From Citricoccus zhacaiensis (GTDB taxonomy: Bacteria; Actinomycetota; Actinomycetes; Actinomycetales; Micrococcaceae): a DNA stretch of 64,000 nucleotides. How positions within the stretch are numbered: the stretch's first letter is position 1; each line of letters begins with the position of its first letter. Positions 25,015-29,214 of this stretch are shown here, piece after piece. The notes below the pieces were generated by a model. The model was not told the DNA's origin and made no database searches. It worked only from the letters and a program-made list of their open reading frames with translations. Location: contig NZ_BMLQ01000002.1 of assembly GCF_014645315.1 (NCBI RefSeq), positions 372,001-436,000 of the forward strand, given 5' to 3'. Made by a program: the position numbers and the translations under genes.

Positions 25015-26769
25015 TCAGGCGATGACGGAGTCCACGATCGCCTTGGCCTCCGCCTGCACCTGGGCCAGGTGTTCGGCGGAGACGAACGACTCGGCATAGA
25101 TCTTGTACACGTCCTCGGTCCCGGAGGGCCGGGCCGCGAACCAGGCGTTCTCGGTGGTGACCTTGAGGCCGCCGACCGCCGCGCCGTTGCCGAGGGCCTC
25201 GGTCATCTTGGCGGTGATCGGTTCGCCGGCCAGGGTGTCCGCGGTGACGTCGGACGGGGACATCTTCTTCAGCTTCGCCTTCTGCTCGGTGGTGGCCGGC
25301 GCGTCGATGCGGGCATACACGGGATCGCCGTACTGCTCCACCAGCTCCGCGTAGTACTCGGTGGGCGTCTTGCCCGTCACCGCACGGATCTCCGCGGCGA
25401 GCAGGCACAGCAGCAATCCGTCCTTGTCTGTGGACCAGGCGCTGCCGTCGAAGCGCACGAAGGAGGCGCCGGCGGATTCCTCGCCGCCGAACACCCCGGT
25501 GCCGTCCAGCAGTCCGGGCACGAACCACTTGAATCCGACCGGCACCTCCACGAGGGGCCGTCCCAGTCCCGCGGCCACCCGGTCGATCATCGAGGAGGAC
25601 ACCAGGGTCTTGCCGACGCCGGCCCCCGCCGGCCAGCCGTGCCGGTGCCGGTAGAGGTAGTCAATGGCCACGGACAGGAAGTGGTTCGGATTCATCAGCC
25701 CGCCGTCCGGGGTGACGATCCCATGGCGGTCGGCGTCGGCGTCGTTGCCGGTGGCGATGTCGAACGGGGCAGCGCCGGCCGACTCGTTCTCCCCGGTGTC
25801 CTCGGACCGCATCCGTTCGATCAGCGAGGCCATCGCGTTGGGGGAGGAGCAGTCCATGCGGATCTTGCCGTCCCAGTCCAGGGTCATGAACCCCCACTGC
25901 GGGTCGACCTCCGGGTTCACCACGGTCAGGTCCAGCCCGTGCCGGGTTCCGATCTCTCCCCAGTACCCCACGGAAGCGCCGCCCATGGGGTCCGCTCCGA
26001 TGCGTACCCTGGCCTGGCGGATGGCATCCAGGTCGATGACCTTGGGTAGGTCGGAGACGTAGCGACCCAGGAAGTCGTAGGTCCCGAGTGCCTCGTGCTG
26101 CCGGGCCTCGGCCAGCGGGATGCGCTGGACGTCCGCGAGGCCGCCGGCGAGCAGGGCATTGGCGCGGTCGGCGATCCAGTTCGTGGCGTCCGTGTCCGCG
26201 GGGCCGCCGTGCGGAGGGTTGTACTTGATGCCGCCGTCGGTGGGCGGGTTGTGGGACGGAGTGATGACGATGCCGTCGGCCTGCCCCGTCTGTCCGGCCT
26301 CCGAGGGCCCGACGCCGGCCGGCACCTCCGCGTTCAGCGCCAGGATCGCGTGGGAGACGGCGGGGGTGGGCGTGAACCCGTCACGGGAGTCGATCAGGGT
26401 GTGCACGCCGTTGCCCATGAGCACCTCGAGCGCGGTGTCCTGTGCGGGGCCCGAGAGGGCATGGGTGTCCCGGCCCATCAGCAGGGGGCCGGTCACGCCC
26501 TGGGCGGCACGGTACTCGATGATCGCCTGGGTGATGGCGGCGATGTGGTCCTCGTTGAAGGAGGCCTTGAGCGAGGAGCCGCGGTGGCCTGAGGTCCCGA
26601 AGGAGACCTGCTGGGCCGGGTTGGCGGGATCGGGATGCAGTTCGGCATAGGCGGCGAGCAACGCCGGCACGTCCACCAGATCCTGCGCGAGGGCGCGAGT
26701 CCCGGCTCGTTCGGCGGCGGGCTTCACCTGGGTGGCGGCGGGATCGGGTGAGGCGTTCTCAGAGCTCAT
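25015..26769 (-). CDS. pgm: Phosphoglucomutase (alpha-D-glucose specific)
   Basis: Interconverts glucose 1-phosphate and glucose 6-phosphate, linking glycolysis to UDP-glucose and cell-wall or glycolipid precursors. The active-site serine is Ser172 in TPSHNPP, the metal loop is [10 protein letters not shown], the sugar loop GEESAG, and the phosphate-binding loop ARPSGTED. The 584-residue length and [12 protein letters not shown] start fit the Pgm group (about 545 residues) with an N-terminal extension of about 30 residues. CACAGT lies 6 nt before ATG 26769, a near match to the leaderless signature. It could feed UDP-glucose to the sulfoquinovose synthase-like enzyme, although the genes are unlinked. 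Confidence 0.95.
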
Positions 26770-26878
26770 GCCACCACTGTGGCACGCCCGGCCCGGGGCG
26801 GGTAGCGAGAGTGTCTACCGTGACACCACTTGGTTCCTCTCAGCATTCCGGTCAGTGCCGGACCACTGGGGTGCGGGA

Positions 26879-27280
26879 CTACTGGGGTGCGGTGACCACG
26901 GAGATGAGCGCATCCACCTCCGGATCACGACGCCGGCCCTCCTCGTCGCACTGCAGGGAACCTTCCCCACACCTCACGGCCCAGACGAAGCCGTCCCGCA
27001 CCCGACCCGGTCCCCCATGCCCCGGCTCGTCTGTGCCCAGCCCTTCTGCGCTCGGCTCTGCTGTGCTCAACTCCGCGATCCGGTGCGCCGCACGCGAGGC
27101 CGGGCCGCCGTCGTCGGGAACCGGGGCGGACCACCGGCGCACCATCCCGGCGATCCCGCCGGAGCGCTCCACCGTGACCTCGAACAGTGCGGTGCCCGAG
27201 CCTTGCTGAGGTGCTGCAGGAACACCAGGTTCTCCAGGAGCCCTCAGTGGTCCCGGAGGGCGGTCAGCAGTGCCATCCAT
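26879..27280 (-). CDS. Emfourin-like protease inhibitor
   Basis: A 133-residue protein with a Pro/Gly-rich N-terminus (about 30 residues) and a compact core starting ALFEVTVERSGGIAGMVRRW. The RSGG-(F/I)AG pattern and the position directly downstream of a protealysin-like M4 protease gene identify it as related to emfourin (M4in), a slow tight-binding inhibitor of M4 proteases first described in Serratia. It presumably protects the cytoplasm from the partner protease. ATG 27280 lies 6 nt after TAGGCT (27292-27287), so it seems able to be made from its own leaderless mRNA as well as by read-through from the protease gene (50-nt gap). The C-terminal half is less conserved; binding residues cannot be assigned. 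Confidence 0.75.
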   Translation of the reverse strand: MDGTADRPPGPLRAPGEPGVPAAPQQGSGTALFEVTVERSGGIAGMVRRWSAPVPDDGGPASRAAHRIAELSTAEPSAEGLGTDEPGHGGPGRVRDGFVWAVRCGEGSLQCDEEGRRRDPEVDALISVVTAPQ

Positions 27281-27286
27281 GGTGCA

Positions 27287-27292
27287 AGCCTA
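27287..27292 (-). promoter_or_regulatory. Leaderless-type -10 (TAGGCT) of the emfourin-like gene
   Basis: Minus-strand TAGGCT ends 6 nt before ATG 27280, within the protease-inhibitor gap. Confidence 0.55.
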
Positions 27293-27329
27293 CGCAGGGG
27301 GTGCCCGGTGCCGGTTGTTCCGAGTCCGC

Positions 27330-28406
27330 TCAGGATCGGGCGGTCAGGACCCCGACCTGCTCCCAGGCGTCCCGGACCGCCGTGGCCACGGCCTCGTCGA
27401 ATCGTTCGCCGGCCGCCAGAACCGTAGCTTCCGCGAAACCGGCGAAGTCGGCATCACGCGGCAGTGTCTCGCCCGTGACGACGTCGAACCAGACCTGCCC
27501 TGCCCGCTCCCAGGCGTGTCCGCCGAGGGCCATCGCCGCGAGGTGGAAGGCCTTGTTGGGGATGCCGGAGTTCAGATGCACCCCGCCGTAGTCCGCCTGA
27601 GTCTCCACGTAGTCGTCCATGTGCGCCGGTTGCGGATCCCGCCCCAACCGCGGGTCGTCATAGGCGGTTCCCGGCGCGGCCATAGACCGTAGCCCGTCAG
27701 CCTGGACGCCCTCGCCGAAGATCTCCGAACCGATCAGCCAGCTCGCCTGCTCGGCCGTCTGGCCCTGCGCGTACTGGTCCACCAGGGCGCCGATCACGTC
27801 GGAGAAGGACTCGTTCAGGGCACCGGACTGGCCCTCGTAGAGCAGGTCCGAGGAATACTGCATCAGCCCGTGCGCGAGCTCGTGGGCGATCACGGACACC
27901 GAGGGCGTGAAGCCCGTGAAGACCTCACCGTCGCCGTCCCCGAACACCATCTGCGTCCCGTCCCAGAACGCGTTGTCATAGCGCTGGCCGTAGTGGACGG
28001 TCGCGAGCAGTCCCAGCCCGGTCCCGTCCAGGGAGGACTGCCGGTAGACCTCCTCGAGAAACGCGTGCACGGAGCCGATCCCGTCATAGGCCTCGTTGAC
28101 GGACACATCCTCCACCGGTGGCTGTCCCTCCGTCCGCACGGTCCTGCCGGGGAGTTCCTCGGTGTTCTCCGCATCCGAGATCGTGCGGTCCAGGGTGCCC
28201 GCCGGGGCCACCAGCGCGCGTTCCGGCAACGCCCCACGGTGGCGCCGCTCGCGGACCTGGTCATCCAGCTCTAGGGTCCTCACAATGGCGGCCGGCGGCC
28301 GGTGCCGGGACAGGTGCTCCAGCAGATACGGGGGCACGGCGCAGTGGCGTTGATATCCCGGCACCATGGCGGTATCGCGCGGTGTCGTTGCCGTGAACAT
28401 CATCAT
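27330..28406 (-). CDS. Protealysin-like M4 (thermolysin family) metalloprotease
   Basis: A zinc endopeptidase of 358 residues. Zinc ligands are His175 and His179 in HELAHG and Glu199 in ALNESFSD; the transition-state His277 is in VHLNSGIPNKAF. It lacks a signal peptide and the long FTP/PepSY propeptide of thermolysin. Instead, a short N-terminal region has HCAVPPYLLEHLSRH (21-35), the propeptide signature of the protealysin subfamily. Protealysins are cytoplasmic or exported without a classical signal and cleave actin in host cells in Serratia; the role here is unknown. Three consecutive ATGs (28406, 28403, 28400) follow GGGAGGGA; 28406 or 28403 is likely used. An emfourin-like inhibitor gene follows. 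Confidence 0.9.
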   Translation of the reverse strand: MMMFTATTPRDTAMVPGYQRHCAVPPYLLEHLSRHRPPAAIVRTLELDDQVRERRHRGALPERALVAPAGTLDRTISDAENTEELPGRTVRTEGQPPVEDVSVNEAYDGIGSVHAFLEEVYRQSSLDGTGLGLLATVHYGQRYDNAFWDGTQMVFGDGDGEVFTGFTPSVSVIAHELAHGLMQYSSDLLYEGQSGALNESFSDVIGALVDQYAQGQTAEQASWLIGSEIFGEGVQADGLRSMAAPGTAYDDPRLGRDPQPAHMDDYVETQADYGGVHLNSGIPNKAFHLAAMALGGHAWERAGQVWFDVVTGETLPRDADFAGFAEATVLAAGERFDEAVATAVRDAWEQVGVLTARS

Positions 28407-28527
28407 CAGTTCCCTCCCGTGGCCGCCAGCGTCGGACGGTCCGGCCCCTGCGGTCTTCATCATCCTGCAGGCGGCCAGGGACACGATAGGGATCCGCTGC
28501 GACCGGGACGGTGTCTGATCCGTTCCG

Positions 28528-28533
28528 TAGACT
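28528..28533 (+). promoter_or_regulatory. Probable -10 (TAGACT) of the DUF4190 gene
   Basis: TAGACT would start transcription near 28540, giving a leader of about 75 nt with an AAGGGGAG ribosome-binding site just before ATG 28615. Confidence 0.4.
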
Positions 28534-28614
28534 GGGCTCATCATTCCGCCTGCCGGCGGCTGGCTCGTCCAGTTTCCGGTCCGGCCCGCAGCAGCCGAAG
28601 ACCCAAGGGGAGCC

Positions 28615-29214
28615 ATGTCCGATCGGGACCCACGCCAGCACGGTGGCCAGTCGTCCGAGTCGTCGGACGGCGACCGGCCGTTCAACGACCCGCATCACCC
28701 CTCCTGGTACTCGGACCCCTCCGCGCCGGCCACGCCCGCCGCTCCGCAGCAGTCACCCGGACAGCAGGCCGCCGCACGCAACCCCTATGCCGATCAGCCG
28801 CTGGCCGGCCCCTACGGCAACGGCCAGGGGCAGTACCCGATCCAGGGCGAGTATCCCGTCATCGCCAATCCGTCAGGCCAGGGCGGGGCCGGAAACCCCT
28901 ACGGCTCACGTGCGGGCCACACCGGACCGTGGGACGCGTCCGGTCGTCAGGCGGGCAGCCCGTTCCCCACGGCCGGCCACCCGGCGCAGCCCAGTGGCCT
29001 GGCCGTGGCATCCATGGTGTTGGGCATCGTCGGCGTGGTGACCGGCGGGTTCCTCTTCGTGCCCCAGATCCTGGCGGTCATCCTCGGTCACGTCAGCCTG
29101 AACCGGGACCGTCAGAGCCGGGGCTTCGCGATCGCCGGACTGGTCATGGGCTACCTGATGACCGGGCTCACGCTCCTCGGCGTTCTCGGATTCATGGCGC
29201 TGCTCTTCGTCTGA
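28615..29214 (+). CDS. DUF4190 domain membrane protein
   Basis: A 199-residue protein with a long hydrophilic N-terminal region rich in Pro, Gly, Gln, Ser and Tyr (1-125), followed by a DUF4190 domain with two TM helices: LAVASMVLGIVGVVTGGFLF and a second one ending in FMALLFV, separated by a loop with AVILGHVSLNRDRQSRGFAIAGL outlined here by its ILGH and RGFAIAGL motifs. The family is common in Actinobacteria and has no assigned function; the Pro/Gln-rich domain is likely cytoplasmic and disordered. It diverges from the M4 protease gene and converges on the amidase gene. Confidence 0.85.
   Translation: MSDRDPRQHGGQSSESSDGDRPFNDPHHPSWYSDPSAPATPAAPQQSPGQQAAARNPYADQPLAGPYGNGQGQYPIQGEYPVIANPSGQGGAGNPYGSRAGHTGPWDASGRQAGSPFPTAGHPAQPSGLAVASMVLGIVGVVTGGFLFVPQILAVILGHVSLNRDRQSRGFAIAGLVMGYLMTGLTLLGVLGFMALLFV

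What the first reader, a model, noticed from the sequence alone, without database searches (positions are those of the whole stretch)
26879..28406. Protealysin-like protease with an emfourin-like inhibitor on its own leaderless promoter
The protease has the short protealysin-type propeptide and all zinc ligands. The downstream inhibitor has a TAGGCT 6 nt before its ATG, so it could be made without the protease. This resembles the logic of a toxin-antitoxin pair, where the antidote must outlast or exceed the toxin.
Basis: partly seen in the sequence, partly recalled or inferred. Interest (0 to 1): 0.6.

Follow-up and report, generated by a model that had tools for sequence, protein, structure and literature searches.

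The report
Protease with separately promoted inhibitor gene
An actinobacterium carries a protein-cutting enzyme next to the gene for its likely inhibitor, and the inhibitor gene appears to have its own built-in on-switch, a feature that recurs in several related bacteria and would let the antidote be made without the enzyme.

Summary
Observation confirmed. On the minus strand, 28406..27330 encodes a 358-aa protealysin-type M4 protease (best PDB match: protealysin precursor) and 27280..26879 a 133-aa divergent emfourin-like inhibitor. TAGGCT ends 6 nt before the inhibitor's ATG. Tests support a leaderless promoter. In 268 genes called in part of this genome, TANNNT stands 6-7 nt before the start in 28, against 16 at 36 other distances. 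TAGGCT-N6-ATG is kept in all 6 genus members found with both genes, although the gap differs (9 versus 44-49 nt). In 158 unfused pairs (the window's included), TANNNT lies 6-7 nt before the inhibitor start in 38, against 3 at 38 other distances; the other 120 lack it there. In 14 of 83 loci the inhibitor is instead fused to the protease.

The protease-emfourin operon is known (Serratia, PMC9505478); rhpPC of Pseudomonas (PMC6490944) is probably the same kind: protease toxic alone, separate inhibitor transcript inferred by qPCR. I found no leaderless promoter for the inhibitor in the papers I could search. Inhibition and transcription were not tested. The toxin-antitoxin likeness is a fair analogy for how it works, not membership. 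Verdict: new variant of a known kind.

The parts
27330..28406 (-). protealysin-like M4 metalloprotease gene, 358 aa, ATG start
   Evidence: Pfam M4 domains; PDB 2vqx E 1.3e-110; active-site motifs at residues 175, 198 and 276. My simple gene caller put the start further up, at 28463; the ATG at 28406 is kept in the two sister species
28412..28418 (-). Shine-Dalgarno-like GGGAGGG, 5 nt before the protease ATG
   Evidence: read directly
26879..27280 (-). emfourin-like inhibitor gene, 133 aa, with a Pro/Gly-rich N-terminal extension of about 30 aa
   Evidence: iterated profile; alignment A1; 27 of 27 members match PF20242 at E<=0.1
27287..27292 (-). TAGGCT, likely -10 box of a leaderless promoter, 6 nt before the inhibitor ATG
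27281..27329 (-). 49-nt gap between protease stop and inhibitor start; alignable with the gaps of 49 and 44 nt in two sister species, while three other genus members have 9 nt
28403..28501 (-). likely remnant of the 3' end of a lost DNA/RNA non-specific endonuclease gene, now the protease's leader
   Evidence: blastn 71% over 101 columns, E 8e-8 against the window; tblastn 33 aa at 61%, E 1e-10 against this stretch alone without composition correction, but only E 6.6 against the whole window; intact gene in L018 (Pfam Endonuclease_NS E 1e-39); no match of that family in this genome at E<=0.001
28483..28488 (-). TATCGT, the only TANNNT in the 234 bases scanned upstream of the protease; a weak promoter candidate
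   Evidence: not kept in L003
25015..26769 (-). phosphoglucomutase-type gene downstream on the same strand (name recalled from the sequence, not searched); could share transcripts

Best explanation
This is a protealysin-emfourin pair. The protease has no recognisable secretion signal (judged by eye) and is made as a short-propeptide precursor. The small protein downstream binds and blocks it inside the cell. The inhibitor gene can be transcribed in two ways: by read-through from the protease, and from its own leaderless promoter whose -10 box (TAGGCT) places the transcript start at the ATG. This gives the cell inhibitor before, or in excess of, protease. Shown here: family membership, gene order, the start-anchored -10 motif and its conservation. 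Inferred: that the promoter is active, that the protein inhibits this protease, that the protease is harmful when free, and that excess inhibitor is the reason for the promoter.
For: In 268 called genes of this genome, TANNNT is found at spacing 6 in 19 and 7 in 9, against 16 at the 36 other spacings from 0 to 37. TAGGCT-N6-ATG is kept in all 6 genus members that hold both genes, across two gap architectures. In 65 unfused distinct loci, 13 at spacing 6, 9 at 7 and 3 at 38 other spacings; in 93 further loci 11, 5 and 0. Counting every candidate start without choosing: 16 and 9 against 7 elsewhere, among 97 starts that include three repeated genomes. Hexamers differ between lineages (TAGCAT, TACCAT, TAACAT), so a Shine-Dalgarno AGG does not explain them. 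The motif stays at the inhibitor's start while the gap runs from -4 to 142 nt, plus 1116 nt in L037. In 10 of 18 motif-bearing loci examined the next gene is on the other strand, so the promoter can serve only the inhibitor there. Precedents in print: RhpP/RhpC, Serratia emfourin deletion, and leaderless transcripts over-represented among toxin-antitoxin pairs in Mycobacterium tuberculosis.
Against: No transcript start is mapped. The motif is missing in 43 of 65 and 77 of 93 loci. Seven of the 22 positives in the first set have the T and A of the box inside the protease's stop codon; without them the excess at gaps up to 20 nt is weak (4 of 29 against 3 of 107, p 0.037). Fisher tests are not corrected for relatedness. 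Control genes with a co-directional neighbour 21-150 nt upstream also carry the motif fairly often, 16 of 118. Four of 83 loci have the protease with no inhibitor detected beside it. Divergence among the three closest species is low (10-13% at fourfold sites), so their conservation alone proves little. In this species the downstream gene is on the same strand.
Confidence: 0.68

Rival explanations
1. Ordinary two-gene operon: one transcript from a promoter before the protease, and the TAGGCT is chance or only a weak ribosome site (AGG 8 nt before ATG).
For: Of the pairs with a gap up to 20 nt, 25 of 36 and 52 of 61 lack the motif, and many of them have a Shine-Dalgarno-like site or an ATGA-type overlap. 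Serratia pln-m4in is reported as one operon.
Against: Start-anchored TANNNT peak in this genome; TAGGCT kept in six species across different gaps; in other lineages the box has no AGG.
Confidence: 0.15
2. The internal promoter exists to drive the downstream phosphoglucomutase-type gene, and the inhibitor merely lies in its path.
For: In the window and two sister species that gene follows on the same strand, about 92-109 nt after the inhibitor. In 8 of 18 other motif-bearing loci the next gene is also on the same strand.
Against: In L018/L102 and L020/L099, with the same TAGGCT, the next gene is on the opposite strand; the same holds for L029, L037, L038, L044, L057, L061, L066 and L072. Much of the gap before the phosphoglucomutase-type gene is conserved in the sister species, so it may have a promoter of its own.
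Confidence: 0.07
3. The small protein is mainly a folding or export chaperone for the protease (as proposed for RhpC), and its separate promoter tunes export rather than protects the cell.
For: RhpC is needed for RhpP to reach the periplasm.
Against: RhpC also blocks RhpP activity and its growth effect in E. coli; an actinobacterium of this kind has no outer-membrane periplasm (general knowledge); fused forms keep the domain attached.
Confidence: 0.1

Closest known systems
protealysin-emfourin operon (pln-m4in), Serratia proteamaculans (passages of PMC9505478 read)
   Same: M4 protease with short propeptide followed by a small inhibitor gene; same protein families
   Different: reported as a single operon; no start-anchored promoter for the inhibitor in the passages read; the inhibitor here is very divergent
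rhpPC, Pseudomonas savastanoi pv. phaseolicola (abstract, passages and two sections of PMC6490944 read)
   Same: M4 protease of 356 aa plus 11-kDa inhibitor 20 bp downstream; protease toxic alone; separate inhibitor transcript inferred
   Different: promoter not located in the sections read; RhpC called a chaperone; that RhpC is an emfourin was not tested here
bacterial toxin-antitoxin modules
   Same: possibly harmful enzyme with adjacent antidote; possible antidote excess
   Different: protease is a zymogen; an unstable antidote and autoregulation were not tested; antidote fused to the enzyme in some lineages
leaderless actinobacterial promoters (TANNNT -10; passages of PMC3898074 read)
   Same: same box at the same distance from the start codon
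   Different: here it lies inside a two-gene unit, directly before the inhibitor

Membership tests
protealysin-like M4 protease | M4 catalytic domains with zinc ligands | tested here: met
protealysin-like M4 protease | short propeptide instead of long FTP/PepSY propeptide | tested here: met
   aligns to the 2vqx precursor from residue 20; no long-propeptide domain in the Pfam scan
protealysin-like M4 protease | proteolytic activity after autoprocessing | not testable with these tools
   needs purified protein
emfourin (PF20242) | match to the Pfam model over its cut-off | tested here: inconclusive
   window protein alone 14.5 bits, cut-off 27: not met; genome search with the model finds nothing at E 0.001; but all 27 members of its alignment, itself included, match at E<=0.1, best 3.9e-17
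emfourin (PF20242) | gene beside a protealysin-like protease | tested here: met
   domain downstream or fused in 82 of 86 loci, 79 of 83 after removing three repeated genomes
emfourin (PF20242) | inhibits M4 proteases | not testable with these tools
   assay needed
leaderless promoter | TANNNT 6-7 nt before the start codon, above background, in this organism | tested here: met
   28 of 268 genes against 16 at 36 other spacings
leaderless promoter | transcript begins at the start codon | not testable with these tools
   needs 5'-end mapping
toxin-antitoxin system | toxin harms its own cell unless antidote present | not testable with these tools
   precedents only
toxin-antitoxin system | always paired | tested here: inconclusive
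   79 of 83 distinct loci have an inhibitor detected beside or fused, 4 do not; in the genus 6 of 8 have both, G003 neither, G007 only a 5'-truncated inhibitor remnant; one inhibitor-like match elsewhere has no protease on its strand in the 3.4 kb fetched (L206)

The most novel reading that the evidence does not exclude
Several actinobacterial lineages have, more than once, given the protease inhibitor an insulated leaderless promoter fixed to its own start codon, sometimes made out of the protease's stop codon, so that antidote is transcribed and translated independently of the protease and preferentially when growth stops; other lineages reached safety by fusing inhibitor to protease. This would be a toxin-antidote dosage device built on leaderless translation.
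Probability: 0.3. Interest if true: 0.62.

Novelty: new variant of a known kind. Interest (0 to 1): 0.46.

Why it matters
Intracellular proteases need a brake made in time. A conserved separate promoter for the brake would explain how the pair is kept safe and gives a concrete, cheap test. The separate rhpC transcript in Pseudomonas was inferred from RNA ratios, with no promoter located in the sections I read; here a precise candidate element exists. The protease-inhibitor fusions offer natural one-to-one controls.

Tried and rejected
Tried: (1) Pattern count of TANNNT-N6-ATG in the window alone: not significant. (2) sigma-70 style scan of 26600-28700: no site. (3) Conservation of the 49-nt gap among the three nearest species: too little divergence to decide. 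(4) A possible orphan inhibitor in G007: it is a 5'-truncated remnant with the protease gone, so not evidence for an independent inhibitor. (5) PDB search with the inhibitor and with its profile: nothing at E<=10 for the first, one unrelated chain at E 0.24 for the second. (6) First fold of a fused protein with 14 rows was poor, pLDDT 59; with 85 rows good, pLDDT 92, pTM 0.83, protease part like 2vqx, but no coordinates were given, so docking of the inhibitor domain on the active site could not be judged. (7) Four loci without detected inhibitor (L059, L089, L091, L094): six downstream frames of these gave no Pfam match; inhibitors elsewhere in those genomes were not searched.

Considered and rejected: classical toxin-antitoxin membership; a promoter for the downstream gene only.

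Choices and dropped rows: starts in the first survey were chosen by rule, then L006 and L007 were set by hand to the ATG that aligns with L005's only candidate (L064 was also written in, unchanged); without that, spacing 6 would count 11, not 13. L018-L020 were dropped as the same genomes as L005-L007. The inhibitor of L006 (G004) runs to the end of its contig, and a second contig of that genome holds another piece. In the second survey 111 loci were read; dropped were 1 repeat, 7 copies of the first survey (one of them fused), 1 without protease on the strand (L206) and 2 without a usable start (L236, L237); 8 were fused, counting the copy; 93 remained. Places fetched for it were part only: 40 of the 55 places without a locus and 20 of the 42, so its proportions are not a census.

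Full report
What is there. Two genes lie on the minus strand: 28406..27330 (358 aa) and 27280..26879 (133 aa). The first has both Pfam M4 domains and is closest among solved structures to 2vqx, the protealysin precursor (E 1.3e-110; other M4 chains follow at E 1.8e-45 and weaker). HELAH, NESFSD and VHLNSG are intact. By eye the N terminus has no secretion signal. It is the only Peptidase_M4_C match in the genome at E<=0.001. The second protein alone scores under the Emfourin cut-off, and the Pfam model finds nothing in this genome at E 0.001. An iterated profile started from it finds an emfourin-like domain beside or fused to the protease in 82 of 86 loci, and each of 27 aligned members, itself included, matches Emfourin at E<=0.1. 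A protease-emfourin pair on a Klebsiella aerogenes plasmid record matches at 70.6 bits, with overlapping genes. So the pair is a divergent member of the protealysin-emfourin kind.

The organism. The window lies in a genome of 3.69 Mb. I infer a Citricoccus-type genus.

The promoter. TAGGCT ends 6 nt before the inhibitor ATG. I called 268 usable genes in the window plus 15 stretches of 20 kb with a simple codon-usage caller. TANNNT stands at spacing 6 in 19 and at 7 in 9; the 36 other spacings together have 16. The caller is crude: it missed the inhibitor and put the protease start at 28463. The signal nevertheless shows that leaderless promoters are common here. Among co-directional genes with gaps of 21-150 nt, 6 of 61 in this genome have the motif at 6-7; with gaps up to 20 nt, 2 of 73. 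In the flanks of the relatives the figures are 10 of 57 and 1 of 34, and the proteases themselves have it in 6 of 81. Over the whole genome TAGGCT-N6-ATG occurs 36 times against 11 for the reversed pattern.

Conservation in the genus. Of 8 genus genomes, 6 have the protease and the same 6 have the inhibitor; that of G004 runs to a contig end, with a further piece on another contig. G003 has neither. G007 has only the 3' part of the inhibitor and no protease. In the window species, G001 and G006 the gap is 49, 49 and 44 nt; in G002, G004 and G005 it is 9 nt. All six read TAGGCT-N6-ATG. In the latter three, TAG is the stop codon of the protease; in the former three it is not, yet it is kept. Divergence among the three nearest species is only 10-13% at fourfold sites, so the comparison across the two gap types carries the weight.

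Conservation beyond. In 65 distinct unfused loci (the six of the genus included) the motif lies at 6 in 13 and 7 in 9, with 3 at 38 other spacings. By gap: 11 of 36 (up to 20 nt), 10 of 26 (21-150) and 1 of 3 (longer). Against the pooled control genes (3 of 107 and 16 of 118), p is 1.4e-5 and 0.0085; leaving out the 7 where the protease stop supplies the TA, 4 of 29, p 0.037. These tests ignore relatedness. Positive rows are the window genus, Cryobacterium (7 of 7), Mycetocola (2 of 2), Frigoribacterium, Rathayibacter, Leifsonia flava, Agromyces, Okibacterium, Microbacterium stercoris and Arthrobacter pullicola. The Streptomyces, Rhodococcus, Clavibacter and Herbiconiux rows and the other Arthrobacter rows are negative. 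A second set of 93 loci gave 11 at 6, 5 at 7 and none elsewhere: 8 of 8 loci in two genera of one unnamed family (f19, by its boxes probably Microbacteriaceae), 0 of 7 in a third genus of that family (g59), 7 of 10 in one genus of the window's own family (g32), where the box lies inside the protease's last codons, and one more (L207). On a protease tree of 83 rows the motif needs at least 7 changes, 4 of them forced by well-supported branches: it was gained or lost repeatedly.

Only for the inhibitor? In the window the next gene downstream is on the same strand. In 18 motif-bearing loci examined (16 from outside the genus plus L018 and L020) the next gene is on the other strand in 10 and on the same strand in 8. 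The 10 argue that the promoter belongs to the inhibitor.

Fusions. In 14 of 83 distinct loci (mostly Intrasporangiaceae) the inhibitor domain is joined in frame to the end of the protease by a linker of variable length; 7 further ones appeared in the second set. The label needs 2 changes on the tree. A model of one fused chain is confident (pLDDT 92), with the protease part like 2vqx, but the relative placing of the domains could not be inspected.

The lost third gene. In L018 a DNA/RNA non-specific endonuclease gene overlaps the protease start; in L020 the like sequence runs in frame into the protease (open frame of 809 aa in G002). In the window the endonuclease's 3' end probably survives as the protease's leader: blastn E 8e-8 over 101 columns against the window. 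The protein-level match of 33 residues is strong only when that stretch alone is searched and not significant against the whole window (E 6.6). The family has no match in this genome at E<=0.001.

How it works. Most likely: a zymogen protease kept in check inside the cell by its partner, with the partner made both by read-through and from its own leaderless promoter. In print, RhpP alone inhibits growth of Pseudomonas and E. coli through its active site, RhpC blocks it, and the two transcripts respond oppositely to nutrients, from which the authors infer separate promoters. Serratia without emfourin loses optical density earlier. In M. tuberculosis leaderless transcripts are over-represented among toxin-antitoxin pairs and rise in starvation. 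That RhpC is an emfourin was not tested.

Not in print? Searches of the held library for emfourin, protealysin, protealysin-like, emfourin-like, M4in, RhpP and RhpC showed no description of a leaderless promoter for an emfourin gene or of the fusions in the listings and passages seen. The founding paper on emfourin is not held, so it may contain either.

Noticed in passing
L032, L036, L040, L045, L046, L051, L058, L063, L068, L070, L073, L074, L076, L080: Emfourin-like domain fused in frame to the C-terminus of the protealysin-like protease, mostly in Intrasporangiaceae; inhibitor and enzyme in one chain.
   Followed up: partly
window 28403-28501: The leader of the protease gene looks like a remnant of the 3' end of an endonuclease gene that is intact in a genus mate and has no match in this genome.
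   Followed up: yes
L007 and L020 upstream of the protease: An endonuclease-like sequence runs in frame into the protease (open frame of 809 aa), a possible nuclease-protease fusion or a frame error.
   Followed up: no
L005, L006, L007 at the protease stop: The protease stop codon TAG doubles as the start of the inhibitor's likely -10 box.
   Followed up: partly
window and L103-L117: About one called gene in ten (28 of 268) carries TANNNT exactly 6-7 nt before its start, a strong leaderless signal.
   Followed up: partly
L122, L138, L140, L142, L143, L144, L179: In one genus of the window's family the box TAACGT or TAATGT sits inside the last codons of the protease, where relatives mostly have a glycine codon.
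   Followed up: no
L037 and L158: The inhibitor with its box lies about 1.1-1.2 kb after the protease; a 362-aa frame between them in L037 has no Pfam match.
   Followed up: partly
L206: A second inhibitor-like match in genome G037 with no protease on its strand in the 3.4 kb fetched; a possible orphan.
   Followed up: no
L239 (NZ_CP081947.1): A plasmid labelled Pseudomonas carries a protease-inhibitor pair that looks actinobacterial by eye; the label may be wrong.
   Followed up: no
L098:7672-7998: Truncated inhibitor remnant in a genus mate that lost the protease.
   Followed up: yes
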